This document shows positions 1 to 21,536 of a stretch of 21,536 nucleotides of DNA, piece after piece. Both the position numbers and the translations under genes were made by a program. The first letter of the stretch is position 1. The number at the start of each line of letters is the position of its first letter. The notes beneath the pieces are model-generated. The model saw only the letters and a list, made by a program, of their open reading frames with translations, did not search any database and had not been told where the DNA came from. The DNA is taken from positions 1 through 21,536 of IMG/VR virus record IMGVR_UViG_3300033146_002655; one strand, written 5' to 3'. The stretch comes from a virus.

Positions 1-114
1 ATCAGAAAACATAACACCAACTTGTGAAAGCAGGTAGTTATGCAGTGTTGTATGATGAAAATCTTTATTATAACCCTGTGCATCTGAATTCAGAAAAGCG
101 GTTCTTTGTGCCAT
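1..114 (-). CDS. Start of an unidentified phage protein (runs off the window)
   Basis: This is the first 38 codons of a gene that continues past base 1. It opens with MAQRTAFLNSDAQG, and all 38 codons are open with no TGA. A promoter-like TTGCAA/TATTAT pair lies 34 bases upstream, so it probably begins its own transcript after the fibre block. No Shine-Dalgarno site is visible. The N-terminus is too short to assign a family. By position it could be another virion or adhesin protein or the first gene of the next module. The start is fairly secure because the upstream bases in this frame are AT-rich and carry stops. Confidence 0.6.
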   Translation of the reverse strand, partial: MAQRTAFLNSDAQGYNKDFHHTTLHNYLLSQVGVMFSD

Positions 115-147
115 TTGTTATATTTATAGATAAATAATTATTATTTG

Positions 148-175
148 ATAATACTCACAAATGTTTTTTTTGCAA
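148..175 (-). promoter_or_regulatory. Sigma70-like promoter upstream of the last gene
   Basis: On the minus strand TTGCAA (170-175) is followed after 16 bases by TATTAT (148-153). The same -35 word occurs at the other promoter-like sites in this window. It lies in the gap between the broken adhesin gene and the gene starting at 114. Confidence 0.55.
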
Positions 176-664
176 GTTTTTATTATGTTATAGTAAGATA
201 CACAACTCAAGGTTCTGTATTTCATCACGATACAGATGATGTAACAGAATAAGTAACTCATCAATATACTTCTGATGCAGTTCATCATCAGCTATATGTT
301 CATGCTGTATTTCACAGTCAATTTGTTGCAAAATCGTAATATCGATATTGATGAGTGCTAGAATTATTAGACCCCCTGAATTTTACCTTTCATAAAGCAT
401 CGTCTACTGTTATTCAAACTCAATAAAATCAAGCTCATGATAATCCATTCTCATTGTAAAAAATCTTAGATTCTCATGTATTCTTATTTATAGAAAATAC
501 TGCGTATCTTAACAAATCGCTGTCAGACGAATACATTATAGCACAAGCAAATAGATAATTAGTTCCATTAAATACATAGCTGCTTCTTCTTTCTGCTCTG
601 CTGTCTCATCATGTTAGCACCATCTTGTTTATCTTAGATGAAAAATCTAAAGACATACTACCGC

Positions 665-735
665 TTACTCCGAAAATATCTACTCTATCTTTTATATTAA
701 TTGGGATTAGGTCTTGGGATTAGGTCAGCGTCGTT
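665..735 (-). repeat. Copy A of a diverged direct repeat shared by two adjacent genes
   Basis: Apart from the extra 13 bp, this stretch matches 1307-1365 closely, including an unbroken core from the TATAAAAGAT region through GACCTAATCCCAA on the minus strand. It encodes the NDADLIP...FGVSG motif near the N-terminus of the broken gene. The pair looks like the footprint of a gene duplication. Confidence 0.85.
701..726. repeat. Perfect 13-bp tandem duplication
   Basis: Two adjacent identical copies of TTGGGATTAGGTC (plus strand) occupy 701-713 and 714-726. The paralogous stretch at 1340-1355 has only one copy. Thirteen is not a multiple of three, so the duplication shifts the frame of the gene it lies in. 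Confidence 0.97.
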
Positions 736-789
736 GTAGTTTGATGCTATTCATTTGTATCACATGATGGTTTTTTGTTACTGGTTAAA

Positions 790-1389
790 TTAAGTTATTT
801 CTATTTTACATAAGAAATACGATGCTTCTGCTGTTCAGCTAGTTGCTACAACATATAAAGAATATGTTAATCAATTATCAGCATCCTTACTTGTTCATCA
901 TGTTGTTATCTCCGTTCAGGTTGTGACATGTCAATTAGCTCTAGCACCCAATATTTTTGTTTCTGGATTGTAGTCTCGATGGGATGCTATCCATCATGAA
1001 CTATAATACTGTCAGTTTATATGTATTATATTATCTGATTCTTTATACACACTATTCACTTCTTGAAATGTGTGTCAATTCATAGTCAATCATCACGTTT
1101 TTGATATATTATTCATTTGAAAATTACCTCAATATAGGTGCGAATATTTATCTGATATAAATATAATTCAAAATTTCGTATCTACAATATATTCTGCATT
1201 TATTGATGTAATAATTCAACCAGACGACCCCCAGAAAGCATCATATCTTTTTCAATCGGTTATGTATGTTATTTCTCAGTCATTTCATAATCACTCATAA
1301 TCTCATTCCACCCCGAAAACATCCACCCCATCTTTTATATTAGTTGGGATTAGGTCTGCGTCGTTTCTGTTTCCTGCACATCAAAGCAT
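790..1389 (-). CDS. Small tail/adhesin-like protein with an NDADLIP repeat motif
   Basis: The predicted protein has 199 residues with TGA read as Gly and ends at TAA 790-792. It begins with MLGCAG and has the NDADLIPTNIKDGVDVFGV block at about residues 9-27. The body is rich in Gly, Ser, Thr, Asn and Tyr with alternating hydrophobic residues, as in beta-rich adhesins. The C-terminus (GGTSKDADNGLTYS...KIEIT) resembles that of the downstream paralogue. It follows the propeller fibre gene by only 18 bases, with TAG at 1408-1410 and TAA at 1399-1401 between them. Context suggests a tail-tip or receptor-binding accessory. No catalytic motif is visible and I cannot name a family. A fusion to the fibre upstream is possible only if two frame errors are assumed. 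Confidence 0.75.
1307..1365 (-). repeat. Copy B of the diverged direct repeat
   Basis: This is the intact counterpart of 665-735. It encodes NDADLIPTNIKDGVDVFGV in the gene at 790-1389 and carries a single copy of the 13-bp element that is doubled in copy A. Confidence 0.85.
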
Positions 1390-1407
1390 ATTTATTTATG
1401 TTATAAG

Positions 1408-3240
1408 CTAAATCTTTGTATATATTCTCATTGTCACATATATACATATCAATTTGATGTTTATCCAGTCACGTGTTATTCAAACACACAAATCTGATGT
1501 AGTGTCTATTTTCGCTAGGTTGTATTCTCATATATTTACTACGTATAGGTATCAGTTATGATAATCCATATATCAAGTTTGGTCGTATACCTCATATCAT
1601 ATATCCACATCTGTTGTAGTAGCTACAGCAGAGAATGTACTTATTGTAAAGTAAGCTAATATATCACTTCAAGAGCAATACAATTTATCTCATACAACTT
1701 TGAATTGGTGTACGTTAGCTTGGTTTGGGTTACTTATATCAGCATTCAATGTGCTTGTTGGTGCACTTACTATATTCGTACCACATCTTACAAAAACTCT
1801 GGTATCTCACTCATCAACGGCTATCACTCACGCTCAAGTATATGCTCATAGTCAATCTTTTGTGATTAAGAATGTTGTATGGCTTATCTGTTTTATAGTA
1901 TTACTAGAGCTAATAGATATGTAGATATTATCTCAACTATGACAAATTCAACTACATTGATTTGGTAAAGATAATCCCGTAGACACACCTGTTGTTGTGT
2001 GTGTTCTATATAAAGTTGGTCACGTATCTCTTTGTCGGTATAAATATTCTCATACAAGATACAGAAATCACGAACATTGTGATACGATACTAAAAGTATC
2101 AACTACTTCCATAGTTGTTTTCTCTATTTTTACTATTTTACTTTGCCCTACTATTGAAGCATATACAAAGTTAGCATCTGCTTGTATATATTTAGTAACA
2201 TACCCCAGACTTTTTACTGTTCCTGCTATCTTTAACCAAGAGGTAATAGTATTTACTCCTTGTCATATACTCTCTATCTTATCATACACTGCATTTCTAC
2301 TTGGTGCGTTTGTTGTATCTCAATCCCAAGAACTATCATATGCTCAGTCTAATATTGAACCAATACTCAATTCAGTAAACGCTATATATTTAACTTCAAG
2401 ATTAGTTTCTGTAGCCGTACTTGTTATCACTACTTGTCCTGCTTGTGCTTCTATTGTTAAATACCCTGCTGGTGTATCTATAGGGAACAAGTTTACTGGA
2501 GTATCTACTGTTATATTTCAGTCTACTATAGTTCGTGGTCATGCTCAGTCTAGTGTATGTACATCAGAAGTAATATAGGTATCAGTTCACATATTGAACG
2601 CTACTATTCTGAAATCCATTGTATCACTAGCATCGTCTGATGCTATTGTTATGCTTCAAATATGTGCTTCTTTAGTTATATTCCCTACTGGCTCTGACTC
2701 AAAATATACATTGAATGGAGTCTCTTCGTCTATCCTGCTATCGTTTATTGTCACAGTAGTTGTTCAATTCATTGTTGAGTCAAATATAGCGTATCAAGCG
2801 TTGTTTGTTATCTTTTCGTATCCTATTCCTGTTGCTCGGTTATCAATTATAGCTATTCTTAAATTAGTACCACCGCCATTTAAATGTACTATATTAGCTT
2901 CTCGATTTACTCATTGGACACCAGATGGGGTTGTGTCAGCCCATTCAGGTTGTTGTGTGTATCCATTACTTGTATGATTTGCAAATATATTTCAGACACA
3001 TTCATCTTGTGAATCATTAAACATAAATTTTACTTCATATCTTCCTGCTTCTACATCAGCCTGTGTTACTCATAAATTATGTGTTATTGAGGGATTGTTA
3101 GCTGATGGAATATTATCACTCAAAAATATTGTCTGGCTACTAGCTCATCAACCAGCATCATCAACATATTTTTTTGTTGCAACATCATTGTCTTCTGTAG
3201 GTGCAGTATAATTTTTCCCTACTTTAAATTTTTCACTCAT
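1408..3240 (-). CDS. Tail fibre with a C-terminal beta-propeller-like domain
   Basis: This is a 610-residue protein with 32 TGA codons. Residues about 14-28 (PTEDNDVATKKYVDDAGG) match the common N-terminal motif of phage tail-fibre proteins. At about residues 304-322, WDGDTTNAPSRNAVYDK matches another widespread fibre motif, with TGA at the Gly of WDG. From about residue 345 there are recurring units of roughly 40 residues ending in GDxLY or GDNIY-like turns, at least five or six in number. They resemble blades of a YncE/NHL-type propeller, which would suit glycan or protein binding at the host surface. The last unit degrades before the TAG at 1408. In the -1 frame a more blade-like sequence continues, so a small indel near 1485-1490 is possible. 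The start follows the hairpin at 3309-3333. No Shine-Dalgarno site is seen. Confidence 0.85.
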
Positions 3241-3308
3241 AGTTCATTTATGGTTGCTATATGTATTCATTCAAAGATGTTAGTTATAAAAATGATACAA
3301 TATTTATC

Positions 3309-3333
3309 GGACACACGAACATTCCGTGTGTCC
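3309..3333 (-). terminator. Perfect 9-bp hairpin between two fibre genes
   Basis: GGACACACG pairs with CGTGTGTCC around a 7-base loop, eight bases past the stop of the 271-aa fibre gene. The bases that follow on the minus strand (GATAAATATTG) are AT-rich but not a T run. It may be a weak terminator or an mRNA-processing or stability element. Confidence 0.55.
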
Positions 3334-3340
3334 TAAAATA

Positions 3341-4156
3341 CTATATAATAGAGTATTCAAGTGTTATTTCAGCAGCTCAAGTTGTAGCAGAGTCTTGTAC
3401 ATAAGTACCAGTAACTTGTGTAGAAGAACCATATAAGTGATATGTATCAATAACATATACTCAAGGTACAGCTAAATTAATTTCAGAAGATGCAGCCAAT
3501 CTGTCTGTATCTCATGAGTCACCGATTTCTAATGTACTTTCAGAAGCACCATCAAAAGCCGAACTAACATTAATAACAACTTTTGTAACTATTGCATTAG
3601 ATGGAAGTTGTGCCCCAATATTTAATGGAGAAGAACTACCAAATGCCAATGTTGCTCTTTCAGCTTTCATAACTTTTGTTATAGCTGTAGACGCACCAAG
3701 GTCAACCCAAGTTGAACCATCTTCGTCTCGTAGGTATCTGTGGTCAGCTTCGTATTCATCCGTACCACCAGTTAAAGCATCAGTAACTGATATAACCATT
3801 CCTTCAATAATAGTTATTTCGTTCCAAGTAGAACCGTCACTTTTATAGACTTCATTTAGTAAAAATCCATTTCCAGCTGTAGTAACTAAAGCAAATGTTC
3901 AATCTGCTGCGGCAGGTGTAGGTACTGACCCATCTATTTGAGCAGATACATATACACTAGCTCTTTCGTCTAGGAACTTTTTTGTAACTAAATCATTATC
4001 TCCTACTGGAGTTGCACCTCTTGCAATAACGTAAGCATCATCAGCTGCATTACGATGCTCAATTGCACCACCTGATTCTTTAATTCTTGAATTTCCTTTT
4101 CCTAGTTCCAGTTCCGAACTAACTCCAGATATTCCATAGTTTTTTGTCTCTGCCAT
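3341..4156 (-). CDS. Tail fibre / adhesin protein (271 aa)
   Basis: The frame opens at MAETKNYGISG and closes at TAG 3341-3343, with only four TGA codons (3377, 3461, 3512 and 3899). Residues near 65-75 read DNDLVTKKFLDE, the same kind of N-terminal fibre motif as in the downstream gene. A middle section has repeated DGSTW elements. The last 100 residues (NAIVTKVVINVSSAFDG, LEIGDSGDTDRLA, GAAEITLEY) have the look of a beta-sandwich domain found at the ends of many phage fibres. Most glycines use GGA or GGT, unlike the neighbouring 218-aa fibre, which writes three quarters of them as TGA. That could mean high expression or a separate origin. Its role in host attachment is inferred from the motifs and position. 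Confidence 0.85.
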
Positions 4157-4181
4157 TTTATAATAAAAAAATAAATTAAAA

Positions 4182-4838
4182 TTAAACTGCTAGTTTTATA
4201 GTTTTTTTTGTGTACCTAAACTTTAGACTTCATCATACAGCTACGGACTGTAATTGTACAATTATATTCCCACCAACAATCATAAACGAATAAAGAACTT
4301 CATCAACAATATTAGGTTGTCATGTATACTGATGGTCTGCATCAGCAGATATTCAATCATGAACTATTCTCATAAATCATTCTTGATAATTTCACCCTCA
4401 TTCTAATGAGTATGATATTTCGACTACTCTATCTGTGGATATAGTTCCTACATTTATTTGTTCTGTTGAGTTATCTCAAAAGTTTACCTGTGTTTCCGTT
4501 TCTGCCTCACCTGTGTTTTTTATTGTGATTTCTGTGGCTGTTCCAGTTATTTCTATTCAAGCTCAGGCTATTAACGATTTGAAATCAAGTGCATCTCATG
4601 TTTTTGAACTATAAACTCATATTCAACTTCATATATTGCTTCAATAATTTGCCTCTCATCATCATCACATCGTGTAGACGGTTTCGAATAGACTAGTAAA
4701 TCCTTCCACTAATCGCTCTCAAATAGTATCGTCACATGGGAATGTACTTCAGTCATTAACAGTTATTTCTCATATATCTGGTAAGCCAGTATCAACTCAA
4801 ATTTGTGTTTCTCATGATATGTTTCTTAATCGCCTCAT
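4182..4838 (-). CDS. Gly-rich tail fibre / tail-tip protein (218 aa)
   Basis: This protein has 218 residues, and 24 of its 32 glycines are TGA, including a run of four in a row (4669-4680). LIAGAGIEITGTATEITI at about residues 90-107 matches the AGxGI(T)I...ITI motif of phage fibre and spike proteins, with TGA exactly at the motif glycines. This is one of the clearest proofs of the Gly reading. It starts 38 bases downstream of a strong promoter-like site and heads the fibre block, which the 271-aa and 610-aa fibres follow. It probably links the tail tip to, or forms part of, the receptor-binding apparatus. No enzymatic motif is seen. The region just after its stop is T-rich but has only a 5-bp stem, too weak to call a terminator. 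Confidence 0.85.
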
Positions 4839-4874
4839 ATAAACTAATTATATATAAAAAAATCTGTTATTTGT

Positions 4875-4947: not shown

Positions 4948-5988
4948 CTAATCAACCCTGAGCTTATCTATCTTTGTATTCATACTTTCTATTAATGAAG
5001 ACAATGTGGATTCTGTCGATACTGCCTCTCATACCTCTACGACCTCATACGCTTTTCAGAATTTATATGTAAGTGTTTTTTTGATAACAAAAACATCTCA
5101 TGTATAGTCAGATATATTCACAAGTCATTCTATTTTGAGTTTTACCTTATCTCAAATATTTAAATGGAAGCCATTTGATTCATCTAACACGACCTTTATA
5201 GTTCTCTTATTTACGTTTTCTTTTTCCAATAATGCCGCTGTCTTGATTCACAAATCTCATACTTTAAAGTTTTCCACCTTTAATCAATACGGATAATCAG
5301 TTACCTCTTGAGCCAAGGTTCTGCTTCCATCAGGATTAACTCATATCACCACGTTTGACCTATTGTCTGACTGAACCTCACTCACCTCCTTTACATTTGA
5401 GGCGGATGTCGTATCAAAAAATATTTCAACCTCTCAACTTCAATAAGTTTTGTCCTCTCAAATCAACGGGGATATCACTATTTTATTATCTCTGACAGTC
5501 CAATATGCGTCCAGCTGGTCGGCTATCTCTTGGATTATTCAAGAACAAGAAGCTCAAAGTTGGTATGACATATTTATTCATCAAGAATAATCAATCTGAT
5601 ATTCTCGCAAATCCCCTAGAGTATTTCGTCTATCCATCATCCTTGAAACAATCAATCACACATCTGTTCAAATTTCTTCTTCTCCCACTAAAGCTCCCCT
5701 ATCTTGGAGTAATCATTTTGCACTTCGGCAAACAACATCAACCCTCTCGTTCAATATTGTTGCTATTTTGTTTACAGTTTTTACAAATCATTTAAATTTT
5801 AATACATCAGGGTTTCATGCTTCATATATTTCAACCTTATTATATTTTGATATATCATATCATTCTATCTGGAATTTTGCTTCTCAAAAAGATGCTAAGT
5901 CATCCGAGATTAGCACTTCTTGTTTTAGGTACTGTTGGTGTTTCACTTCAGTAGACCAATAATGTTCGTATACCTTTACTATTATCAT
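4948..5988 (-). CDS. Baseplate / tail-hub-like protein
   Basis: The open frame encodes 346 residues with 23 TGA codons and ends at TAG 4948-4950. In the siphovirus gene order the protein after the distal tail protein is the hub or tail-associated protein that closes the tube. The visible features fit a hub built on a tail-tube-like fold. An N-terminal segment reads FGEAKFQIEGYDISKY and then YEAG...KFKGFVKTV. A central domain includes YWTVRDNKIVISPL. The C-terminal part has IGDKVKLKIEGL followed by a short helix (SLIESMNTKIDKL). It is short compared with hubs that carry lysin or peptidase modules, and no such motif is seen. It starts 27 bases after the preceding stop with no Shine-Dalgarno site. 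The name is mainly from position and general pattern. Confidence 0.75.
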
Positions 5989-6015: not shown

Positions 6016-6858
6016 CTAAATAGTATTCCAAGTGTCATATCGTTGCACAATAAAACTACTCGTAGCTCCAACATCATCAGTAATCATTATACTGTTATCT
6101 CATGGTGTTAAATATATTGGCACTCATGATTCTCTCTTATACATTATATCCACACCCTCATCTTTTACAGTCCATTTTCATAGTAAAGAATTTAGCTCAA
6201 GATTGGTCGTTGTTCAATCTATTTTAAACTCCTGTCCGTTGGTTAAGTTTTTGATTCTAGGGTTCACTAAAGTTCCCACTGCAGTGATTGCACACCCAGC
6301 CTTAAAATTCCCAGCATTGTTACATAGCGAGCTACCAGAACTAGCTCCTCGTGAATTTCAAAACTTGTTTGCGAAATTTGTTCAACCAAATATACTTGCA
6401 CTTCACGATGCACTGTGCAATGTTGTTCAATATAGCTCATTTGTTTCTGCGTACAGCTCAAATCAGAATACTATTCTTGGGTCGTTTACACCATTAGAAC
6501 CTTTTGGTTTTTTATTGACTTTTGCCATTACCCACAAATCTACACCTAAGTCAGATTGGAATTCTAATTTTTTATATGGGTCTACATTCACATATGGCTC
6601 AATATTTACTTTAGATGTCAACAATGCCCAGGCTGTACCCTTCTCTACCTTTGTGATTGCAGATATATATCAATCAAAACTAAACAACCTTCAACCCTCT
6701 AGTGTGTTAGAAGCTGTGCTACCATGGTCATTTACATTATCAACAATATTGGTTCTTTGTGAAGTGACCCCCTCTACGTTACTCAACGCTATTTTTGTTG
6801 AGTAAACGTTTGCGGGAGACATATCCAATCAGTTGTACTTGAAATTCTTTCCTATCAT
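6016..6858 (-). CDS. Distal tail protein (Dit-like)
   Basis: This 280-residue protein lies directly after the tape measure, the usual place of the Dit ring that joins tube to tail tip. The N-terminus (FKYNGLDMSPANVYSTKIAL, then DNVNDHGS and EGGRLFSFDG) follows the pattern of siphovirus tail-component family proteins: an early short beta segment, a central RxxF/G-S block, then a galectin-like C-terminal part. The C-terminal segment contains AITAVGTLVNPRIKNLTNG and IDGTTTNLELNS, a typical jelly-roll strand pattern. Many glycines are TGA. ATG 6856-6858 starts 45 bases past the tape-measure stop, and the frame ends at TAG 6016-6018. Confidence is good for Dit by synteny and pattern, without a database search. 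Confidence 0.82.
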
Positions 6859-6903: not shown

Positions 6904-9900
6904 CTAAATCTTTACAGACTGTCTCAGCATTCTTTCAAGGGACTCTAGGTCTAGTCAATTATTCACAGTTATTTTGTTTGATTGGTTTATGGTTTTCAGT
7001 GTTTGTGCATCCATTGTCTGCCCCAAGTTTGCATCTGCTCTAAGTCCAACAACAACTTTTAACATTTTTAAGATATCACTTCAATCTGATTTATCTTTTT
7101 TCAAAAACTCCGTCAACATTGATGAGACATTGCTAAGCTTATCAAGTGCTTCTTTTTGCTCTTTAAGGTCAGCTCTATACTCAGATGAGACATCTTCATC
7201 AAAACTTCACATATCAACTCAAGATAAATTATCTCTAACATTAGAGCTTTGGAAATCTTCAAATGTAAATCACTCTCAATACATACCTTTACTTTGCATA
7301 TACATATTCGCGGCTTGAATGTAATAATCTTTTAGCTCTTCAAGTTTTAATTTGTTTGCGTCTTTTAAGTCCTGAAGTTCTGTTTGTTTAGCTTTCAAAT
7401 CCATATCACGAGCATCTAATATTCATTGTGTCTTTGTTGTCAACTCATTATTCAGTGCGTCTCTTATCTCACTTGTAGACAACTCATTCTCAGCCACAGA
7501 TTTCTCTTGGATTAGCGATGCTCTAGTATCATAATAATCCTGTAATTGTTTTTCTAGTTTCTCTAGCTTAATTCTTTGTGCTTCTTCTTCCTGTACATCA
7601 AGCTGTGCTCTTAGTGACGCCTCTTCTGTTGCAGCAGTAACCATTAATGCTTGTTCGTCTGCTAGTTTTGTTTGCAAGTCTGTCAGCTCTAGGTTGTATG
7701 CGTTTAATTTTTCGTCACGCTCTCTTATAATCTTCTCAGCAGGTGTTTCTGTGGTCTTTGTCTCTGCTGCCGAAATATCCGCTGCTGAAACCTCTCATGC
7801 TGCAAGTGCTTGTTCTGCTAATGCTGATGTTATATCGTTCTCAAGCTTTAGTTTTTCCTCTGCTTCAGCTGTAGATATAAACGCCATTCAATTCAAAACA
7901 TCAAGCCTTTTTTGATTTTTCTCTATCTCATCTCAAAGCTCTACATACCTATCTGCTAGTGAAACTTTAGAGTCGCCTTCTAGTTTAGACATACTTTCGT
8001 TTATCTTATCTATACTTTTAAGATAATCCTCTATGTTTCAGTTTCATTCCTTGATTTGGTCTGTTACTATTTTCCAATCCTCAGATAGGGTAGATGTTTC
8101 TTCGCCAGCCTGAGCTATTGCTAATTGTTGTTCCTGTATCTGTATATTAACTTCTTCAAGTTCCGACACGATATCAACATACCTTTCCTGTAGTTCTTCG
8201 GTTGCATCCGTTTTTATTTTATCCATCTCATCGTTCACCCTCTTCATTTCGTCTGCCAAATCAGCAAGAGCCTTTGCAGTTTCTTCTATTCAACCTCAGA
8301 TACCGTTGTATGCGTTCTGTCCAGCTTCTTTGATTTCTTTTCGCTTTGCTATAACTTCTTCTGCATTTTCCAAAATAGTTTCATGGGTTTTTCATTCTAA
8401 CTCTCTTACTTTTGTTTCATATTTTTCTTTTGCTTTCATTATTGCCTCAGCTTTTTTTCTCTCATCGTCATATGTCTTTTCTATATGCTGGAGTCTTGTA
8501 ATATATCTATTCTCTTCTAGCACTATCTCTGCTTGTATAATAGCGTTTCTGGCTTCTGCAGAACTTAATCAAGCTCACATAGCTGCGTTTTCTGCCTCTT
8601 TTAATTCTACCAATTTTGTTGATAACTCAAGTTGCTCATCCATAAGACGTTTTTTTGTTTCCTCAGATAATCAACCTGCAGCCAAAAGTTCTCATATTCA
8701 TTTAAGTTTATCTTCTGCGTCTCATGATGTTTCAACTATTTGTCATAAAACATTTTCAATCTCACCAAGTTTTTCTTTTGTATTGGTTATATTTGGGGTT
8801 TTCCACGGAGTGATGTCATCTAAAGATATTGCGTTTATGGCGTTTAACCTATCTGCTAAATCTCAAAGAGCCGTGACCTCGTTGTTTATCTCCTTTGTGA
8901 TACTTATATTAAAAATATCTCACAATAATGATTTATCGAATTTCTTTTCTATTCGGCTAAGGTCATCGTACTCATCCTGCAATGAAGCAATTTTTGCTTG
9001 TTGAACTTTTATTAAGTCTAATAATGTTTGCCTAGAATCAGCAGACACACCCCTTAATATCTCCCTTATTTTATTTAATCAAGACGCTGTTCAATCCATA
9101 TTAAGCTCAATACCGTTTAGTATTTTTGTTTGTTCTTCAACACCATATCATCATTCCGAAACTAATTTTAATACCTCGGCGTGAGAATTTAGCGCTTTGT
9201 CTGCTTTTGAAAAAGTTTCACTCGCTTTTTTTACCTCTTTTTCCATTTCGAAATACGCAGTATCGACCTCCCCTATTTTTTTAGAAAAAATATCATATGC
9301 TTCAGCCTCACCTAGAATATTGACATTATCATAATATTCTTTCTCTATTTTATTCTTTTTTTCTTTAAGGTCTAATAGTTTTTTTATTGCATCGGTTTCT
9401 TTGTTAGCTAACTCTTGCTTTGTTTTATTGTTTTCACTTATTTTTCTTTCAATAATAGCCTGTGCTTCAATTTGAGATAATGTAAGTTTCTTTTCTTTCG
9501 CCAACATTCTTTCTGCAGCTATTAATTTATCTAACTGCTCCGTATATTGTTCTATACTTATTTTTCAAGACAAATATTTTTGCATCAATTCATCCTGTGA
9601 GTCAGTATTTTTTTCAATTTCATTATTTAATTCTCATAATTTGTTTTTTAATATATCTGTTTTTGTAGCCATAACATCAACGCCACCTCACCATATAGCA
9701 AATACCGTTCACAATGCTCATGCTGCTGTAAGTAGCACCATCAATGGAATTCATAATCAACTAAGTGCTAATACCGCCGCTGCTAGTGCAGCAGTAAAAA
9801 TTATTAACGTAGTTCCAAATCATTTAAACTTTTCAGATATATTATTAAAAGCAGTTACTAACTTTATCTTTATTTTTAATAAAGTTTTATATGCTGGAAT

Positions 9901-11861: not shown

Positions 11862-12410
11862 CTAACTGATTAATTTTAAAAGGTCTTCGTCTTTATTGTT
11901 TTTGCTGAACTGATTTTTGTCATTTATTGCCTGTCACTCCTCAGTCTGCGATTGTGCATTATATATTAATCATTCCATTAGATAATTCATCTGTTCTACC
12001 GTATATTTCTCTTGAAACCCCATAGGGTCGATGGATAATTTCTCACACAGCATCATAAGTATCGCACTGTAAGGTTGTGAGGGTTCACTATCTGAAGTCC
12101 CCTTAGAATTTCAGAATGTTCATTTAAATCTAGTATTTTTTATAGTGTCGAACACTTTTTGTGATAAATTTTTATCAAGCCTCATAAGTCATGAAGTGGT
12201 CTTGTTTATATCACTATTTTCTGTAAGAAAGTCAGCCATCCAATCTCAAACCCCTCATTTTTCAACAAGCATCAAGAAATCTATAGTTTCCATAATTGTT
12301 GCTTGCTTAAATTTCATGGTTATTTTATTTTCGGTGTTCTTTCAATCTAATAATAGAGATATGTTAAACGATATATCAAAGTCTCTTTTTTTTGGATAAT
12401 CGTACCACAT
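11862..12410 (-). CDS. Tail assembly chaperone-like protein
   Basis: This 182-residue protein sits between the tail tube and the tape measure, the conserved place of tail assembly chaperones such as lambda gpG/GT. Its acidic, helical middle (ILMMLCEKLSIDPMGFQ, then EQMNYLMEGLIYNAQSQ) fits that family's style. The last 25 residues are hydrophilic and disordered-looking. The start MWYDYPKKRDFDISF follows the terminator at 12441-12478. Many such loci make a longer product by -1 frameshifting. Here the -1 frame closes within a few codons and the tape measure begins at once, so I see no frameshift extension. It carries about eight TGA codons. The role is inferred mainly from synteny. Confidence 0.7.
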
Positions 12411-13406: not shown

Positions 13407-13589
13407 CTAAAAGCGAACAATCCCAGTTCTTTTTTCAACCGTTTTGTTCATTATTTTGTTCAAAATAACAACTTTTTCTGTTTTCTTTTTACTAGTTTTT
13501 CTCTTAGTAGTTTTTTTACTAGCTTCTTTCTTAACAGCGTTAGCTATTATTCTAGTATTTTTTTCCTCTAAGCAATCTCAACATCACAT
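13407..13589 (-). CDS. Tiny Lys-rich protein with a CGxC N-terminus
   Basis: This short open frame of 60 residues fits the gap between the tail-terminator-like gene and the tail-tube gene. Its start lies one base after the upstream stop, and it ends at TAG 13407-13409. It begins MGCGDCLEEKNTR, with both early glycines as TGA, and then has a block of Lys, Thr, Ser and Arg (KKEASKKTTKRKTSKKKTEK). The two cysteines could bind a metal or form a disulphide, and the basic block could bind nucleic acid or an acidic partner protein. It was missed by standard-code prediction because two TGA codons fall in the first five. I do not recognise a family. Confidence 0.6.
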
Positions 13590-13590
13590 A

Positions 13591-14019
13591 TTAATTTTGT
13601 GTTATGTATATAAAATCATACGTTTTCCTCATAATTATATTTTCCTTAGCATCCCTCATAGCCTTGCTCATACTTCACTGGATAATATCGGTTATAGTTG
13701 CGTTTCATAGCTTCTTTATCTGAAAACATCAGTCTGTATCAGGAAGCAACTCATTATCAATCACTATAAACATATCCTCTAGCTCGTCTGCCACCATGTC
13801 TGGTCATCAGAGTATACTCACTTCTATATGGGCACGCTTAGTAAAGTTATTGTCTCATCAGAACTCAAATTTAGTCACATACATCCACGGCTTTACAGCC
13901 ACTTGATTTAAGCGCTTTAAAGGTTTTTCATTCGTAATACCTCATGGGAACATATCAGCTATTGCTGGTATATTTGATAATGCCTCACTTACATCATATA
14001 TCTTTAAGTTCGTTATCAT
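13591..14019 (-). CDS. Tail terminator / tail-completion-like protein
   Basis: This 142-residue protein starts inside the end of the gp10-like gene (overlap 14013-14019), so the two are probably translationally coupled. It has a Phe/Tyr-containing strand pattern (VKPWMYVTKFEF, AHIEVSILGGPDMV) and a helix (DELEDMFIVIDNELL). It ends with a strand (YDFIYITQN), the layout of small tail-terminator proteins that cap the tail tube before joining to the head. About eight TGA codons are read as Gly, including the GG pairs of FEFGGD and LGGPD. Assignment rests on order (after the gp10-like gene, before the tube) and size. Alternatively it could be another neck protein. Confidence 0.65.
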
Positions 14020-14387
14020 CCCCTAAGTTTTTTAAATAAATCATCTTTTGCTTCCTTAAATCAATCCTCAAACATATGTGCTCCCTCTTGTTTTCATCCG
14101 AATATAGATACCCTCTTTCACGCGCTAGTGTATTTGTGATATGTCATGTCTACTCACATTCAATCTTCGACCTTATGCTCATAGCTTCACAAATCATTAT
14201 ATACACCTCAAACCACATTTCAGGAAATAAGATTAGCCTCTTCTATCTTATTGTGTTCTATTAAATCCATGGTAAGCTCAGGAGTAAGTTCGTCTATTTT
14301 CTTCTTAACCTCGTATAATCATAAGTTTAACCTCCTTAAATACATCCCCTGTAACTTGTTCATCATGCTATTAACATTTAAACTCAT
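14013..14387 (-). CDS. HK97 gp10-like neck protein
   Basis: This 124-residue protein overlaps the upstream gene by 10 bases and the downstream one by 7, an overlapping cassette typical of phage neck genes. It starts with a helix (NVNSMMNKLQGMYLRRLN), and the middle reads ANLISGNVVGGVYNDLGSYE...VDMTYHKY. This is the pattern of HK97 gp10-type proteins, which have a helix and then a G-x-Y-x-x-x-V region and act at the head-tail or tail-completion stage. It contains about 12 TGA codons, read as Gly, several in that conserved middle section. The frame ends GGATGATAA, so the final residues are Gly-Gly before TAA. Family call is by pattern and order. Confidence 0.72.
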
Positions 14388-14734
14388 TTTTGGTTAAGTC
14401 TTATATAAATACATTCTAATGTTCAATCTGGCATCTTATAATAATCCAAACTATCTATAATATATAAATCAATTCAAATTTTCACATAATATCCTTGTAA
14501 AATTGGTTTAGATTCATTGTATTGAGATGGTGGAATTACTAAATCCATTCTGTCTAGGTCTTGTTGCCTATTACCCAAATCAGGTTGATAATTCACAACA
14601 TGACCCCTAGTTGCTATATAGTAATCACATTTTACATTTTCATATAACAATGTTTTTACTTTAACGTCAGTTCATTTTTTTCTAATGACCTCCGACTTAT
14701 ATATACTAGCTATCTTGTCATAAAATATCTCCAT
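14378..14734 (-). CDS. Head-closure / head-tail joining-like protein
   Basis: This small protein has 118 residues, ends at TAA 14378-14380 and has four TGA codons. After an N-terminal helix (MEIFYDKIASIYKSEVI) it alternates hydrophobic residues in short strands (VKVKTLLYENVKCDYY, RMDLVIPPSQY, YVKIGIDLYIIDSLDYY). This is the compact beta-barrel layout of head-closure (stopper) proteins, where a late strand typically reads IxxxxYxVxSV. It follows the gp6-like connector, as expected for a protein that seals the portal after packaging. It overlaps the next gene by 10 bases. No Shine-Dalgarno site is visible. Confidence 0.65.
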
Positions 14735-14743: not shown

Positions 14744-15280
14744 TTATATTCTTAAAAGCCTATACCTATTTAATATCTTCTCAGCCTTATTTTTGTACGT
14801 CTCCGATGCTCAAGCAGCGTACTCAACACTCCTTGGTCACATTTTATATTTAGCTATTTGCTTTCATCCCCCTTCGAGCATGGCACTAACTAACAAAGCG
14901 TGTGCAAGTATTAAGTCTTCTGGCACAGACACAAATCAAGATAAGTATTTTATCCTGAAAGTGCTTCTATCTAAAGACATATCAACATTTTTCGACAAAT
15001 CTTCAAATACAACTTTTCTGTTTTGTGGAGACAGTATCTCATATCATAACGTATATTGCTTTTCATCAACTTCAAGAATTTCTTTTATCTCTATATTATT
15101 AAAAAGAACACTATTATCATATATTTTGCACAAACTAATATCTTCATATTTCACAGAGTAAGATATGTCCCCTACCACATCAGTTATGTCATTCTCAAGA
15201 TAAGACAACATACTTTCTATTTTCGAGTCAGAGTATTCTGTTCATACAAAATTTCTAACATCATCTATGGTTGCATACAT
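14744..15280 (-). CDS. gp6-like head-tail connector
   Basis: This 178-residue protein starts MYATIDDVRNFVGTEYSDSK, the typical opening of gp6-type head-tail connectors, which form a ring under the portal. A helix-rich C-terminal part (SVPEDLILAHALLVSAML, then SVEYAAGASETYKNKAEKIL) also fits that family, in which the last helix packs on the portal. About seven glycines use TGA, including one in the EYAAGA turn. ATG 15278-15280 is the first in-frame start after the stop of the acidic gene. The frame stays open upstream into that gene's last codons, but no better start is seen. It ends at TAA 14744-14746. Confidence 0.78.
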
Positions 15281-15303: not shown

Positions 15304-15966
15304 TTATTTATTTTTAGCTTCTGCTATTTTTGCTTTGATAGTCTCTACTTTCCAGTTTGACATAGCGTTTATCCCAAACTCTTTAGCTTCAGCTATTAAC
15401 GCATCAATATCGTCCGCATCTTCTTCTTCTTCGTCCTCTTCGTCCTCGTCTTCTTCTTCGTCCTCTTCGTCCTCGTCTTCTTCTTCGTCCTCTTCGTCCT
15501 CGTCTTCTTCTTCGTCCTCTTCTTCACCAGAAGATACTTCGACTTCTCCGAGGTCTTTTAAAGCAGCTTTAGCAGCAGAAACAACGTCTTTATCATCGTC
15601 TTTAGCAAGTTCTGTTAATTTCAAGAATACTTCTTCTCTTCTAGTCAACATCCCAGATTCCAATGAAGCTATTTCGTCAGCACTGTTTTCTTTAACCTCA
15701 AGAATACTTTCTTTAAGGTTTGCAACAGTTGTTTTCAAAACCTCTTTTGTTTGAGAAACTTTTTCTATATCTCTTTCTAAAAGAGTGTTGTAGTTTGTCA
15801 TCATAACCTCTACCTCTTCTCAAACCAACACAAACTGATTACTTAACATGAACTTCATGCTTAGTTCAGATTTTATTGTTTCTCCAGAGTTTACTTTATG
15901 AGACGGTCACCCTTCTACTTTAGATACGTTTGTGTATTCTCTACCTATATATCTATATTTTTTCAT
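15304..15966 (-). CDS. Acidic-repeat head protein with a HeH/LEM-like C-terminus
   Basis: This 220-residue protein lies directly after the capsid gene. Its first 54 codons are found only if two TGA (15820 and 15907) are read as Gly. The start at 15966 is supported by a weak TTGAGGT just upstream. The N-terminal 55 residues look beta-rich (MKKYRYIGREYTNV, MKFMLSNQFVLVGEE). Residues about 56-140 are helical and coiled, and residues about 147-182 are almost pure Glu/Asp, built from a 27-bp tandem repeat. The last 37 residues (LIAEAKEFGINAMSNWK, ETIKAKIAEA) match the short helix-extended-helix pattern of HeH/LEM-type domains that cap many phage head proteins. A role in head completion or capsid decoration is inferred from the position. 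Confidence 0.75.
15421..15528 (-). repeat. 27-bp tandem repeat encoding an acidic tract
   Basis: About four head-to-tail units of 27 bp start at 15421, 15448, 15475 and 15502. The second and third are identical, and the first and last differ at the edges. Nine codons per unit keep the frame, giving repeats of EEEDEDEED in the protein. The unit number could change by slippage without breaking the gene. Confidence 0.92.
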
Positions 15967-16036: not shown

Positions 16037-17182
16037 TTACAATGTTACATTTATTCCCATAACAATTCGTGGGTCTATAGTTCCAGCTTCTTTGTTTACA
16101 ACAGCAAATCAAAAATCCATAGCAGCAACAATTGAGATACCTTGTCCCAAAATTTTGTATGTTTCCATATCTAATGGTGCTCCAAATCCAAATTGTAACG
16201 CTTGTTTTTTCATATACATGAATCCACCTTTGTCATTATTTGCCCCTGTAGCAGACATTTTACCATCAGCTTCTGTTTTAGGGAAAGCTCTTGGTACGTA
16301 TACATCATTTCCAGATATTCTAGTTATCGCTCCAGTAGCAATAGTAGATTTTTCTCCGTTTTTAGAAGCATCTGCAAATTCTGTAATAGTGATAGCTTTA
16401 TTATAAGTAGCACCATTCATCAAAAGTAATAAGTCTTGCAAATCGAAAGACCAATCTCCCAAAAGAGCTCTAGTATCCATTATGTTTGCCCAAGTCATCG
16501 CTCCGATAGATTTGTAGTCAACATCAACGGCTCATCCTAGAACAGTTTTTCTAAGACCATTGTCGTATCCCAATCTGTGGTCTTTTATTCCGTCAGGGAA
16601 AGTCACAGATGGTTGTGCATCGTCACAGTTAATATTTCCAGTAGCTGTGTCAGTAGAATCAGCATTTAACATTGCAGACTCCATAGTTTTAGCGAAAGAT
16701 GCAGCCAAACCTTTTTTAACAACCTCTTCTAATTTTACAACAGAGTATCTTAATTCTTCAGCTGATATATCAACTTGTGCAATTATAGATTCTTGTGTTA
16801 TTGTAACTTTAGCAGTAGGAAGTTTTCTATTAGCTTGTTGATGTGCTAATGCAGCAGATGTTCTTTCTGAACCCATAACAGCAAAACCAACCTCACCTAT
16901 AATAGGTACACTAACAGATTTACCCATACTATTACCGTGAAAACCCGGCAAAGCGTTAATAAATGTTCCGTAAGTAGGTATAATACTAATCACTTGGTTA
17001 GTAAGAATATCATCTGGGATTAATTCTTTACCAAACCCAACATTACCAGTATGCTCAACTTCGTTGGCATTGTCTTTAGTTTTTTGTAGTTCTTCATAGT
17101 CGTTTACTTGAGCTTCAATAAGCGCGTTTTCCAATCCACCCACTTCTTTTAACTCTTTCATTTGTTTTAAAATAGAATCCAT
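16037..17182 (-). CDS. Major capsid protein (HK97 fold)
   Basis: This is a 381-residue protein, ending at TAA 16037-16039. It sits directly after the protease-scaffold gene, the canonical place of the capsid subunit. The N-terminus is a helical segment, partly coiled (LKQMKELKEVGGLENALIEA), probably a cleaved delta-like region. Then follows the P-domain style section with TFINALPGFHGNSMGKSVSV and GFAVMGSERTSA. After it come KVTITQESIIAQVDISAEEL, the helix VKLEEVVKKGLAASFAKTME, and a C-terminal part with GNDVYVPRAF and MYMKKQALQFGFG. These are typical of HK97-type capsids such as phage phi1026b-like subunits. Only two TGA codons occur (16109 and 16532), in LGGAVDVDY and AMDFGFAV, where Gly fits well and Trp does not. 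Trp elsewhere uses TGG. Low TGA use fits a very abundant product. Confidence 0.92.
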
Positions 17183-17211: not shown

Positions 17212-18606
17212 TTATCTTTTAAGACCTGTTAATAAATTAGTTAATCTATTATCAGACTCTGTAGTGCTCTTCTCAGTATAAGCAGAAACACCATTAGTTA
17301 CAATCTTTTTAAGAGAACCTTTAACTTCTATAAGATTTTCTAGGGCTAGTTGTAACCCCTCCTTCAATTCAACTGCACCATTTTCAGCTGCAATCAACTT
17401 GTCTTCTAATACTTTAATTTTGTCATCACGTAGTGACAACGCTTCATTAAAGTCAACTTTGCTTTTAGCAAAATTTTCACTCAATTCTTTCATATCATTT
17501 TCAGATACAACAGTCTCATCATTTTCAGATGTTTCCTCTTTTTCTTCCTCTGAATTTTCATCAGCATCAGTATTTGATTCATCATTTTCAGATGTGTTAT
17601 CAACTTCCTCTTTTTCATCTTCTTCTTTTTCTTTTTCTTCCCCCTCCCCATCTTCTTCTTCTTCATCCTTAGTTTCTTCCCTTTTTTCTTCCTCTTCAAC
17701 TTCTTCTTCTTTTTCTTTTTCTTCTTCCTTAGTTTCCTCTTTAGTTTCCTCTTCCTCCTTAGCTTCTTCCTTAGTTTCTTCCTTAGTCTCTTCCTTAGTT
17801 TCTTCTTTCTCCTCCTCTTTAGTTTCCTCTTCTACAACTTCCATCTCATTTATCTTTGCTTTCAAATCAGGCGTAAGCCCTTGAGCCAATAGCTCATCTT
17901 TTTGTGTTTGTGTGATTTTCATATCTTCCATATATTTATTAGTAAAATAACTTCATACACTATTATGTGAAACAATTGCATCAGCGTTACTACCTATAGT
18001 AACAAGGCTATTTTCTATCATTTCAGCCTTCGTAACAACCATTGTATAATCATCACTCATTCCCCATGCAACTTTCCATACACTTATCCCTGCTTCGTGA
18101 GCTTCTTCGATTGTATATCTTTTTCCTGTTTTATTGTCTTCAATCATATCCTCTTTAGATATGTGTGATGTGCTAACAGCTGTGATATATCAATTTTCCA
18201 CTTGGTATCTTGTTTTTTCATCCAACGTATTCAAATCAACATAAAACATATTTACAAGATTCCCGTCTTTATCAAGAGACAATCTAACAGAATGTCCAAT
18301 ACCTCCATAACCATGGTTATGCTGTAGTAACATTAATGGATTATTTTTGTAATTTTTGAAATCCCAACCCTTTTGGTCAATTTTATATCAGTTCCTGTTT
18401 TTCTCTCATAACCCATAGTTTTGTGAAGCTATCCCTTCGAAAACCAATATATTATCGCCTTTTGGCAACTTTTTCATTAGCTTTCATCAGTTCTCAGATG
18501 TGTCTATTTCATCTTTATTGAGTTGTGTTGCGTTAAAATTAACAAAAAATCAATTAGCATTAATATACTCCTTGAATTCCTTCTTAGACATAGACGTAAA
18601 ATCCAT
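17212..18606 (-). CDS. Prohead protease fused to an acidic scaffold-like domain
   Basis: One open frame of 464 residues has seven TGA codons. Residues about 54-210 form an HK97-type prohead protease. VFEGIAS is followed by NNPLMLLQHNH, with the likely catalytic His at 96 or 98. GGIGHSV and AVSTSH follow, with a candidate catalytic Ser at 145, and then AEMIENSLVTIGSNADA, the usual C-terminal motif. Residues about 227-464 are a highly acidic Glu/Lys coiled segment, ending in a helix (LQLALENLIEVKGSLKKIV), as expected for scaffolding. An internal ATG at 17929-17931 could give the scaffold alone, as in phages that use a nested start, but no ribosome site is seen. The fusion of protease and scaffold in one frame is confirmed because the only break, at 17953, is a TGA. 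The capsid gene follows after 29 bases. Confidence 0.88.
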
Positions 18607-18651
18607 AATTTGTAATAAATGTGTAAAAATATTAATCACTATATTATATGT

Positions 18652-18681: not shown

Positions 18682-20043
18682 CTATTTTTCGTTTTTATCC
18701 TTGGTTTTACCTTCATCCTTATCCTCTTTTTCGGTAGTTTTTACCTCTTTCCCAACCTCTTTTGTCTCTTTTTTGGTCTTCTTTTGGTCTAAATCTGCCT
18801 TTTTGAATATATTGTCTATAGAATTCCACTGTGTGTTGATAACATAGGTATCCATATACTCAGGCAACCCCTTAGTCGTATATCAAAGCTCAAATATACC
18901 TTGTTTTAAAGTACATAACCCCTTTTCTACTTTTTTCAAAATTAATTCTTGTTTTGTTTCGATATCCACAAATTGGTCATTGATTAGCTCTATCTTAGAA
19001 TATGGAAACGCTTTGAATGCCATCAATGTAGCTTTCATCATAAACTCCTCCAATATATCAGCAAAATCTGTCATAGACTTATCACTTTGACTTGCCATTA
19101 ATTTATATTCAGCATGAGACCCATTTGCATCATCCTTGTATCCTAAAAATCTTGGGTCAAATCAAAAAATAACTCACATTTTCTTTACTGCGAATTTCTT
19201 TAATTCTAATAATTCAATATCCTTATTACTTATATCTATTGTTCTTACTTCTTTAATTCCTCAGGTTGCCAATACTCAGTTAGATTTCTCTGAACCTTTG
19301 AACTTCTCCTCGAATTGTTTTATGGCGTTCTCCATTTCCTCAGCATTCTCTATCTCGTCATCCAAAGTAAGAATAACCGATGGCATTGCATTATTTTTGA
19401 AGAAGTAGAAATTCCTTTTACTAGCCTCCCTATCAGACATTGCGTCATAAACAATACTCTCATACGATGACATACCTATTCATGGAGAGTCTGGGTCATA
19501 CTGAGTTATTTGTTTTACAACCCTACTCAAATCTAATTCAGTAGAATTATATCGCATCTGTTTCACATTTCACATTTTATCAAAAGACTGCCTTATCCCT
19601 CTCGAATCAAGAATTTGCAGTATTGGCTCTCATAATCAATTATTCGCTAAGTATCAAATAATCATTCCTGAACCGAAATGATTTGTATAGTATTTATCTT
19701 TGAAGCTACGGAACGAACCTGTGTGGGGGTCAGAGAACAACGTTGTCAAACTATTAACCCATGACGCGTCTTCTATATACTCTTTACCCATCTTGAAGTG
19801 CATACCTAATTTTCATACCATTTTAGCTATTAGGTTTTTACTTTGCTGCGCCTCAGTATTTAATCTTTGAATTTCATACATTAAAGAATAGTCAAACCTA
19901 ACATCTCAACAATCAGAAAATTTGTTTCAAGCGTAAGTATATCAAGACTTAAATGCCTTTGCCATTATATCGTTCTTCTTTAGTTTTGTGTTGAATGTAT
20001 TTGACACAACCTTATTAACGGTTTTTTTTAATGTTTCAAACAT
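18682..20043 (-). CDS. Portal protein (HK97-type)
   Basis: This is a 453-residue protein with about fifteen TGA codons, reaching TAG 18682-18684. It forms the ring at one vertex through which DNA is packed. The N-terminal third is helical. ASWVNSLTTLFSDPHTGSFRSF and YYTNHFGSGMIIGYLANNGL follow the wing region pattern. The section near residues 258-300 (EVRTIDISNKDIELLE, FAVKKMGVIFGFDPRFLGY) matches the clip and stem core of portal families. The last 60 residues are a Lys/Glu-rich tail (KKTKKETKEVGKEVKTTEK), unusual and probably disordered. The start is firm: ATG 20041-20043 follows AAGGAG at a five-base spacing, the best Shine-Dalgarno site in the window. It follows the terminase and precedes the protease, as usual. 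Confidence 0.9.
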
Positions 20044-20048: not shown

Positions 20049-20054
20049 CTCCTT
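20049..20054 (-). promoter_or_regulatory. Strong Shine-Dalgarno site of the portal gene
   Basis: AAGGAG on the minus strand lies five bases before the portal ATG. Few other genes here have a recognisable site, so it decides the portal start and stands out. Confidence 0.8.
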
Positions 20055-20100
20055 AAAAAAAGTAAACACTTTTCATATGATTTTAGTATAACTAAATCCT

Positions 20101-20129
20101 AGTATAATTGTATACCCCCATAAATGCAA
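20101..20129 (-). promoter_or_regulatory. Promoter upstream of the portal gene
   Basis: On the minus strand TTGCAT (20124-20129) is separated by 17 bases from TATACT (20101-20106). It lies in the 188-base gap between terminase and portal and would start a transcript 60-70 bases before the portal ATG. Confidence 0.55.
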
Positions 20130-20156
20130 ACTATTGTCATAATATTTGTGAAGAGT

Positions 20157-20184
20157 TTGCAATATCAATAAATATAGCTATACT
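20157..20184 (+). promoter_or_regulatory. Plus-strand promoter candidate pointing toward the terminase gene
   Basis: TTGCAA (20157-20162) is separated by 16 bases from TATACT (20179-20184) on the plus strand. It is the only promoter-like pair seen on this strand. It faces opposite to every gene and is followed within about 15 bases by a terminator-like hairpin. Confidence 0.45.
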
Positions 20185-20196
20185 ACATATAACAAT

Positions 20197-20233
20197 ATTC
20201 ACCGAGGAGCAATCCTGACTGGTGAATTTTTTT
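20197..20233 (+). terminator. Plus-strand rho-independent terminator at the terminase 3' end
   Basis: ATTCACC (20197-20203) pairs with GGTGAAT (20221-20227). Inside the loop AGGA pairs with TCCT around a GCAA tetraloop, and seven T follow on the plus strand (20227-20233). Read on the minus strand it lacks a T run. It ends over the terminase stop codon and could stop antisense transcription into that gene, or end a tiny RNA from the promoter just before it. Confidence 0.65.
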
Positions 20234-21536
20234 ATCATCACGAATTATACACAAAGACTTTCTTAGGTCTTTTGACCTCCCAAAACATCCTCATCATAAA
20301 AACGTCTCAGAAATCTGGACTACGACCTATTTTTGCTTTCATATCTTTTTTCTTGATAACCTTTTTGGGTCAATCGACATCTATATCTATCTCGACAACA
20401 GCGTCTATCTCCTCTATTATCCTCTTCTTTACGTCCTCTGCTGTTAATTGTTCAGGTCTTTTACCCTTAGCCAAAGACTCGGCATTCATGGTCTGACCAA
20501 ATACATATATCTTATCTGTGGTCACAGATATTTCGTTTATTTTATTAGCTAACTCAAAATAGCATTGGTCTTTAATCGTCTGGTAATTTAATCTATCCAA
20601 TGGACTTTTCTTAGCTTTCTTCGGCTGTATCGGTGCTGACCTATTGATAAATCATCTACACTTTAAGTGGTCAACAATTCAACCCCCCAAACCATCATCA
20701 TCCACCATTGTCTCTAGTGGTCATATATTATATTTATCCCACAGAACAGTAATCCTCTCCTCCAGCTCAGTAGTGTCACTATAATGATAAACGTATATCT
20801 CCTCTACACTGAGTCAGTTCCAGACTGTTATTACAGCTAAGTCCCTACCATGTCTCGCAGGGTCACACACTATCCTATACTCGTATCAAGTCTGATAACA
20901 TTTCCCCAAATTATCTACCTCTACCTTATAATCAGGGTCAGTTTTATATTTATTTTTCAGCTCAACACTTTTAAGTTGCCTCTCAAATATTTCTATAACC
21001 TCCTCATACTCAAATAACCTTCATGGACTATTATCGTAATCAAAATTTCCATACAAAAGCCTCTCCTTCGAAACCTTATCTTTCATCCTCCTCAAATTCG
21101 CGATATACGCTTTCGGTATAAATTCGTTATCTGTAACCAACGCAGGTATAAATTTCACATTACCCAACTGTTTCCCCTCAGAAAACGGTCTGTAAAACTT
21201 AATAAACACCCATCCCTTATCAGGATTAAAGGTTGATAATATTTTAGGAGATAAACCACTACCCTTCATTCAGCAACTTGGACACATATATACGTTATGT
21301 TCCAACCACTCATCATCTGAACCAGTCGGGTCTGGATTTTTAACTCTATCTTCTCAAATCTTATCCTCCAAATTAACTTCACCAGCACAATGCGGACAAA
21401 AATTCTCAAGCTTATACCTTATTCTAGTTTGCAAAATCTCGTATCCTTTCGCAGGACACTCATTCGCCTCATCTATAAATCATCCTGTAAACTCCATTGA
21501 ACCAAACCTTGTGAACATCGGGTCAGACGGCTCATC
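20232..21536 (-). CDS. terL: Terminase large subunit, C-terminal part (partial)
   Basis: The gene enters from beyond base 21536; 434 residues are visible up to TAA 20232-20234. The enzyme cuts and pumps DNA into the prohead. Visible are the Walker B region (FTGGFIDEANE, residues 17-27), the coupling motif STFNP (101-105), and the RNase H-like nuclease. The nuclease acidic sites are in CDPARHGRD (224-232), VDDDGLGGG (278-286) and SPDFGD (406-411). TGA falls on glycines in FTGG, LGGG and DFGD. Between Walker B and the coupling motif lies a CPHC/CPSC pair (residues 47-50 and 85-88), a probable zinc ribbon inserted in the ATPase. Walker A lies outside the window. The last 30 residues are Lys-rich. 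Confidence 0.95.

What the first reader, a model, noticed from the sequence alone, without database searches (positions are those of the whole stretch)
1..21536. Phage genome in which TGA means glycine (code 25)
Reading minus-strand TGA as sense joins dozens of fragments into complete phage genes with canonical order. TGA falls at conserved glycines: LGGG of the terminase nuclease, GI..EMGG of the tape-measure core, AGAGI of a fibre, WDG of another fibre. Trp is encoded by TGG at its usual places, so TGA is not Trp. Code 25 is known in Gracilibacteria and Absconditabacteria, which makes this a phage or prophage of those ultra-small bacteria. No tRNA-Gly(UCA) is present in the window, so the host tRNA is presumably used.
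Basis: partly seen in the sequence, partly recalled or inferred. Interest (0 to 1): 0.82.

Follow-up and report, generated by a model that had tools for sequence, protein, structure and literature searches.

The report
Phage with three reassigned codons

Summary
The 21.5-kb window is a tailed-phage structural module (terL to tail fibres, all minus strand). TGA is sense at 267 in-frame positions in 20 genes, and every gene ends in TAA or TAG. TGA is glycine, not tryptophan: glycine beats tryptophan by 262 nats in the window, and TGA sits on glycines of cultured code-11 phages. The label "code 25" is incomplete. CGA, and CGG in relatives, encodes tryptophan: the window's 12 scorable CGA codons favour Trp over Arg by 34 nats (0 of 200,000 random draws match). 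Standard-code relatives give Arg with the same method, and CGT and AGG stay Arg. A codon-by-codon scan found no other change. This three-codon code is the one published for Absconditabacteria, so the host is most likely of that lineage. No CRISPR spacer or prophage ties the window itself to a host. Code-25 phages are published; a phage using CGA/CGG=Trp was not found in the literature I could search. The family also shows that TGA-glycine is avoided in the major capsid gene (52 of 53 phages), as in host EF-Tu (23 of 24 genomes), so UGA-Gly looks like a costly codon.

The parts
20232..21536 (-). terL, large terminase subunit, N-terminus cut by window end; 13 TGA (Gly)
   Evidence: PHROG 979 7e-8; 68% identical to G001 terL; tblastn 28-34% to Flavobacterium/Cellulophaga/Bacteroides phages
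18682..20043 (-). portal protein; 14 TGA, 1 CGA at 19552-19554
   Evidence: PF04860 8e-17, PHROG 12 5e-15
17212..18639 (-). putative prohead protease/scaffold (inferred from position); 7 TGA
   Evidence: PHROG 11321 1e-7, unknown function; conserved and syntenic in relatives
16037..17182 (-). major capsid protein; only 2 TGA of 36 Gly codons; CGA at 16067-16069 is the Trp of DPW
   Evidence: PF05065 1.1e-5, above cut-off; TGG in G001, G002 (L003) and G005 at the CGA column
15304..15966 (-). acid-repeat protein of unknown function; 2 TGA
   Evidence: conserved start in G001, G004
14744..15280 (-). head-tail adaptor; 6 TGA
   Evidence: PHROG 442 1.8e-8
14378..14734 (-). connector-region protein, unknown; 4 TGA
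   Evidence: conserved in relatives
14013..14387 (-). connector-region protein, unknown; 10 TGA
   Evidence: conserved in relatives
13591..14019 (-). connector-region protein, unknown; 8 TGA
   Evidence: conserved in relatives
13407..13589 (-). small Lys-rich ORF; 2 TGA
   Evidence: only; not found in relatives
12524..13387 (-). putative major tail (tube) protein (inferred from position and conservation); 0 TGA of 22 Gly codons; CGA at 13127-13129
   Evidence: 76% identical to G001; CGA = TGG in G004, G005
11862..12410 (-). tail-assembly-chaperone-position protein, unknown; 8 TGA
   Evidence: conserved in relatives
6904..11859 (-). tape measure protein; 56 TGA, 4 CGA; CGA at 10201-10203 is the Trp of 'AMWENDAAGAF'
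   Evidence: PHROG 13339 7e-84; PF10145 7e-22; a conserved CGA column reads F,W,W,W,W,F in code-11 phages
6016..6858 (-). distal tail protein (Dit-like); 12 TGA, 2 CGA
   Evidence: PHROG 5577 / 33 1e-7
4948..5988 (-). tail/baseplate protein, unknown; 23 TGA of 28 Gly codons, 3 CGA
   Evidence: 33-35% to G001, G004, G005
4182..4838 (-). fibre-type protein; 24 TGA, 2 CGA
   Evidence: 50-63% to G005, G001
3341..4156 (-). fibre-type protein; 4 TGA, 1 CGA
   Evidence: PHROG 4042 6.5e-12, unknown function; 68% to G005
1408..3270 (-). fibre-type protein; 33 TGA, 4 CGA
   Evidence: N-terminus 58% to G005
790..1389 (-). tail/fibre-region protein; 20 TGA, 1 CGA
   Evidence: 32% to G005
183..656 (-). tail/fibre-region protein; 19 TGA of 22 Gly codons, 1 CGA
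   Evidence: only

Best explanation
The window is the structural module of a tailed phage that infects an Absconditabacteria-type ultra-small bacterium and shares its three-codon reassignment: UGA = glycine, CGA = tryptophan, CGG = tryptophan, with UAA and UAG as the only stops. Shown here from sequence: the meanings of these codons in the phage family, their standard meaning in standard-code relatives, and the existence of class-related bacterial genomes with the same code. Inferred: that the host decodes UGA with tRNA-Gly(UCA) and CGA/CGG with Trp-charged tRNAs UCG and CCG, and that the phage uses this host machinery. Also inferred: UGA-Gly is slower or more error-prone than GGA/GGU, so the most abundant virion proteins (capsid, putative tail tube) are largely purged of it.
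For: TGA=Gly. CGA/CGG=Trp: in the close family all 6 CGG columns have TGG (Trp) as majority and Trp is the commonest residue at CGA columns. The window's CGA codons score W +22.5 and R -11.3, with 0 of 200,000 random draws as high. Standard-code relatives L033, L041 and L075 give Arg with the same pipeline (W minus R -39, -50, -39). In terL the Trp that is WWWW in four cultured code-11 phages is TGG, CGG, CGA, CGA in window, G001, G004, G005; a window TMP CGA faces F,W,W,W,W,F. The codon scan in the clade of 8 finds no other change; the few non-first ranks are codons with no or few informative synonyms. rpoB of seven class genomes has CGA or CGG at conserved Trp columns. One of these, G035, carries tRNA-Gly(UCA) with U73, tRNA(UCG) with A1:U72 and G73, and tRNA(CCG) with G73 and an anticodon arm nearly identical to its tRNA-Trp(CCA). 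The window lies in a fully supported clade of 8 phages, all CGR=Trp. Costly UGA. Published host code: PMC8629427.
Against: No spacer, prophage or tRNA links the window itself to a named host. One window CGA faces Arg codons (AGG, AGG, AGA) in three relatives. CGG does not occur in the window's genes; its meaning rests on relatives. Everything is sequence inference: no peptide was observed.
Confidence: 0.88

Rival explanations
1. Plain code 25: TGA=Gly only, CGA/CGG=Arg, host a Gracilibacteria (BD1-5) member.
For: TGA=Gly fits. Related recoded phages L035, L036 and L037 do read CGA as Arg (W minus R -21, -21, -16), and the nearest genome-bin relative L021 is in a Gracilibacteria bin.
Against: Window CGA favours Trp over Arg by 34 nats; none of 200,000 draws of Arg codons scores as badly for Arg; CGA/CGG swap with TGG across the family.
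Confidence: 0.06
2. Code 4: TGA=Trp (Mycoplasma-type host or phage-encoded suppressor).
For: TGA is open; code-4 phages are known (cited in PMC10746230).
Against: G minus W +262 nats in the window; Trp would be 4.5% of residues overall and 11-12% in three tail genes; no suppressor tRNA in the window.
Confidence: 0.005
3. C-to-U RNA editing rather than reassignment explains CGG at Trp sites (as first misread in plant mitochondria; own knowledge).
For: Editing CGG to UGG would give Trp.
Against: CGA is the commoner codon at Trp sites, and editing it gives UGA, which is Gly here; Trp-type tRNAs with UCG and CCG anticodons exist in a genome of the same code.
Confidence: 0.01
4. Standard-code phage with programmed readthrough or a phage-borne suppressor of TGA.
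For: Some recoded phages carry suppressor tRNAs (cited in PMC10746230).
Against: 267 in-frame TGA in 20 genes and no gene ending in TGA; no UCA tRNA in the window or in any recoded relative scanned; CGR=Trp stays unexplained.
Confidence: 0.02

Closest known systems
Code-25 phages of Absconditabacteria and Gracilibacteria (Liu et al. 2023, PMC10746230)
   Same: Dense in-frame TGA read as Gly; same host group
   Different: That paper compares codes 11 and 25 only; its text holds no CGA, CGG or arginine. Here CGA/CGG=Trp is shown in addition
Absconditabacteria genetic code, UGA=Gly with CGA and CGG=Trp (Shulgina and Eddy 2021, PMC8629427)
   Same: Identical three-codon reassignment, inferred there for bacterial genomes
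   Different: Reported for cells, not phages. The phages that paper reports as sense-recoded use AGG=Met
Standard-code relatives; Flavobacterium phage 11b and Cellulophaga phi10:1 (terL) and Firmicutes phages (tape measure)
   Same: Homologous terL and tape-measure core; terL-portal order
   Different: 28-39% identity; TGA is a stop, and the standard-code relatives read CGA as Arg
Avoidance of reassigned stop codons in highly expressed genes of Blastocrithidia (PMC12153298)
   Same: Reassigned codons depleted in highly expressed genes
   Different: Protist nuclear code; here the same is seen in a bacterial UGA=Gly code and its viruses

Membership tests
Genetic code 25 (TGA=Gly) | TGA is sense and falls at conserved Gly | tested here: met
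Genetic code 25 (TGA=Gly) | All other codons standard, including CGA and CGG = Arg | tested here: not met
   CGA and CGG = Trp
Absconditabacteria code of PMC8629427 (UGA=Gly, CGA/CGG=Trp) | CGA = Trp | tested here: met
   window n=12, W minus R +33.8; clade of 8 n=57, W 127, next F -11
Absconditabacteria code of PMC8629427 (UGA=Gly, CGA/CGG=Trp) | CGG = Trp | tested here: met
   not used in the window's genes; relatives 6 of 6 columns Trp, clade of 8 n=11 W 32
Absconditabacteria code of PMC8629427 (UGA=Gly, CGA/CGG=Trp) | No further reassigned codon | tested here: met
   codons without an informative synonym (ATG, TGG, some A- and T-ending ones, CGC) cannot be judged this way
Phage of Absconditabacteria | CRISPR spacer or prophage link to a host genome | tested here: inconclusive
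   window 1-15290 against 353 genomes of the class: no convincing spacer; capsid relatives only in three other genomes
Phage of Absconditabacteria | A host with the same code and decoding tRNAs exists | tested here: met
Tailed phage, HK97-type structural module | terL, portal, capsid, connector, tape measure, Dit in order | tested here: met

The most novel reading that the evidence does not exclude
Related phages have crossed between hosts whose codes differ at sense codons: the family holds members with CGA/CGG=Trp, members with TGA=Gly but CGA/CGG=Arg, members with almost no CGA/CGG (a possible neutral bridge), and standard-code members. Code differences would then not be a lasting barrier, and crossing may run through codon-free intermediates. 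Some relatives also carry their own tRNA-Trp(CCA), possibly to stop host tRNA-Gly(UCA) from misreading UGG.
Probability: 0.4. Interest if true: 0.75.

Novelty: new variant of a known kind. Interest (0 to 1): 0.62.

Why it matters
A viral lineage that uses CGA/CGG as Trp is independent evidence that this bacterial sense-codon reassignment is real and old enough for parasites to adopt it. It gives a sequence-only test of host lineage (Absconditabacteria-type against Gracilibacteria-type) for orphan phage contigs. It also means that 'code 25' gene calls put Arg for Trp at about a third of Trp sites in such phages. The capsid and EF-Tu results make the cost of a reassigned stop codon measurable, and point the opposite way from the idea that recoded stops favour late structural genes.

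Tried and rejected
DNA search of the class with most of the window was swamped by acidic repeats (about 15400-15530 and 17600-17850); repeated without them it gave no convincing spacer, but only two candidates per genome were scored, so this negative is weak. HMM-emission scoring made K/Q win for TGA and even for the GGA/GGT controls, because low-information columns dominate; it was replaced by weighted column counts with controls. A hint that TAA was sense in L004 was an AT-richness artefact. Code 4, readthrough and RNA editing were rejected as stated. Searches of GenBank phages with portal and capsid found nothing; no PDB relative of the capsid by sequence. The bin of L022 (G009) was not used as host evidence because its identity was not checked.

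Full report
What is there. The window is a whole 21,536-base IMG/VR virus record. Under the standard code only 36% lies in non-overlapping ORFs of at least 100 codons; with TGA as sense it is 92%. Twenty minus-strand genes appear in canonical order. They hold 267 TGA and 257 GGN codons; eleven end in TAA, nine in TAG, none in TGA.

TGA is glycine. I fetched relatives and aligned codons with TGA, CGA and CGG masked. In the first comparison 27 columns of sense-coded relatives opposite a window TGA are unanimous for Gly; the next residue, Ala, has 3. With weighted column counts from about 60 phages, TGA in the window scores G +36.9, next S -59.5, and G minus W +262 nats. Against cultured standard-code phages (Flavobacterium 11b, Polaribacter P12002L, Cellulophaga phi10:1, Bacteroides Versailles for terL; six Firmicutes phages for the tape measure) TGA codons of the window and three relatives face conserved Gly 64 times, next Pro 6.

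The code is not plain table 25. CGA and CGG swap with TGG in this family: opposite window TGG codons relatives have TGG 53, CGA 16 and CGG 6 times, and all six CGG columns have Trp as majority. In the window CGA scores W +22.5 against R -11.3 (n=12); 0 of 200,000 random sets of non-Trp codons score as high for Trp, and 0 of 200,000 sets of AGA/AGG/CGT score as low for Arg. The controls behave: CGT, AGG and CGC are Arg, GGN are Gly, and in standard-code relatives CGA is Arg (W minus R -39, -50, -39 in L033, L041, L075). Some sites can be checked by eye. The terL Trp that is W in all four cultured phages is TGG in the window, CGG in G001, CGA in G004 and G005. A tape-measure CGA faces F,W,W,W,W,F in six Firmicutes phages; I take it to be 10201-10203, read AMWENDAAGAF. 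The capsid CGA at 16067-16069 gives DPWIVMGINVTL; the same column is TGG in three relatives. One CGA faces Arg codons. A codon-by-codon scan in the clade of eight found no further change. RNA editing cannot explain this, because edited CGA would be UGA, which is Gly.

Host. UGA=Gly with CGA and CGG=Trp is the code inferred for Absconditabacteria; for Gracilibacteria the paper reports CGG=Trp in some members only (PMC8629427). In rpoB of 30 genomes from the class of the Gracilibacteria bin that holds a relative (G008), seven genomes have CGA or CGG at conserved Trp columns, while G074 and G103 have CGA at Arg columns. G035, of the first kind, carries a UCA tRNA with Gly identity (G1:C72, C2:G71, U73), a UCG tRNA with A1:U72 and G73, and a CCG tRNA with G73 whose anticodon arm nearly equals its tRNA-Trp(CCA) (identity rules as quoted in PMC8629427). 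So hosts with exactly this code exist. No direct link to the window was found: capsid relatives occur in only three class genomes, none of these seven, and no convincing spacer matches window 1-15290.

Family picture. On a capsid-portal-adaptor tree the window sits in a fully supported clade of eight phages, all CGR=Trp. The wider family mixes CGR=Trp, CGR=Arg with TGA=Gly, members with almost no CGA/CGG, and standard-code members; the state needs at least five changes, though several labels rest on one or two codons and long branches meet. Relatives L007 and L008 carry a tRNA-Trp(CCA) upstream of terL; the window is cut before that stretch, so absence of tRNA genes there says little.

UGA-Gly looks costly. 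TGA is 21% of Gly codons in the capsid gene and 26% in the putative tail tube gene, against 67% in the tape measure; the capsid share is below the rest of the same phage in 52 of 53 recoded phages (p about 3e-10). The capsid gene also prefers C-ending codons (48 of 53) and avoids AGG (7 AGG to 415 AGA, against 555 to 1733 elsewhere), the usual marks of translational selection. In the cells EF-Tu uses TGA for 17% of Gly against 44% in rpoB, lower in 23 of 24 genomes (p about 2e-7). CGA-Trp is not avoided in the capsid gene (27 of 118 against 134 of 543). The phages, and the genomes, are related, so the p-values overstate independence. A parallel is known in Blastocrithidia (PMC12153298).

Prior work. 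Code-25 phages of these hosts are published (PMC10746230) without mention of CGA or CGG. Sense-codon reassignment in phages is published for AGG=Met (PMC8629427). I found no report of CGR=Trp phages in the open-access library, which lacks most subscription journals and preprints.

Verdict. A real recoded phage; TGA=Gly confirmed; code label and host claim sharpened. New variant of a known kind.

Noticed in passing
L003:1216-4956: The terL of relative L003 is one 1246-codon frame that appears to hold two intein-like insertions, one at the Walker A GGGK/S site and one at the nuclease DDGVG/GGL site, both ending in HN and both written in the same code.
   Followed up: partly
L007:3266-3338, L008:516-588: tRNA-Trp(CCA) gene with A1:U72 and G73 about 1.4-1.9 kb upstream of terL; it could compete with host tRNA-Gly(UCA) at UGG.
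   Followed up: partly
L002:188-257 and about 285-357: A tRNA-like element with a 6-base anticodon loop, followed by what may be a D-arm-less tRNA-like element (GGAATAT...GTATTCCT); possibly decayed phage tRNAs.
   Followed up: no
L007:1808-2008 and 2456-2788: Two paralogous ORFs sharing MEELEDFKEASGYG, made of hexamer repeats with 26 and 47 TGA codons (Gly at every second residue); either a Gly-rich protein or a non-coding repeat.
   Followed up: no
L061, L062, L063, L072: A well-supported subclade nested among recoded phages in which TGA is rare or a stop; candidates for phages compatible with both codes, or a reversal.
   Followed up: no
L035, L036, L037: Relatives with TGA=Gly but CGA=Arg, so true code 25 phages, probably of Gracilibacteria-type hosts.
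   Followed up: partly
window 15400-15530 and 17600-17850: Long acidic repeats in the gene after the capsid gene and in the putative prohead protease; they swamp DNA searches.
   Followed up: no
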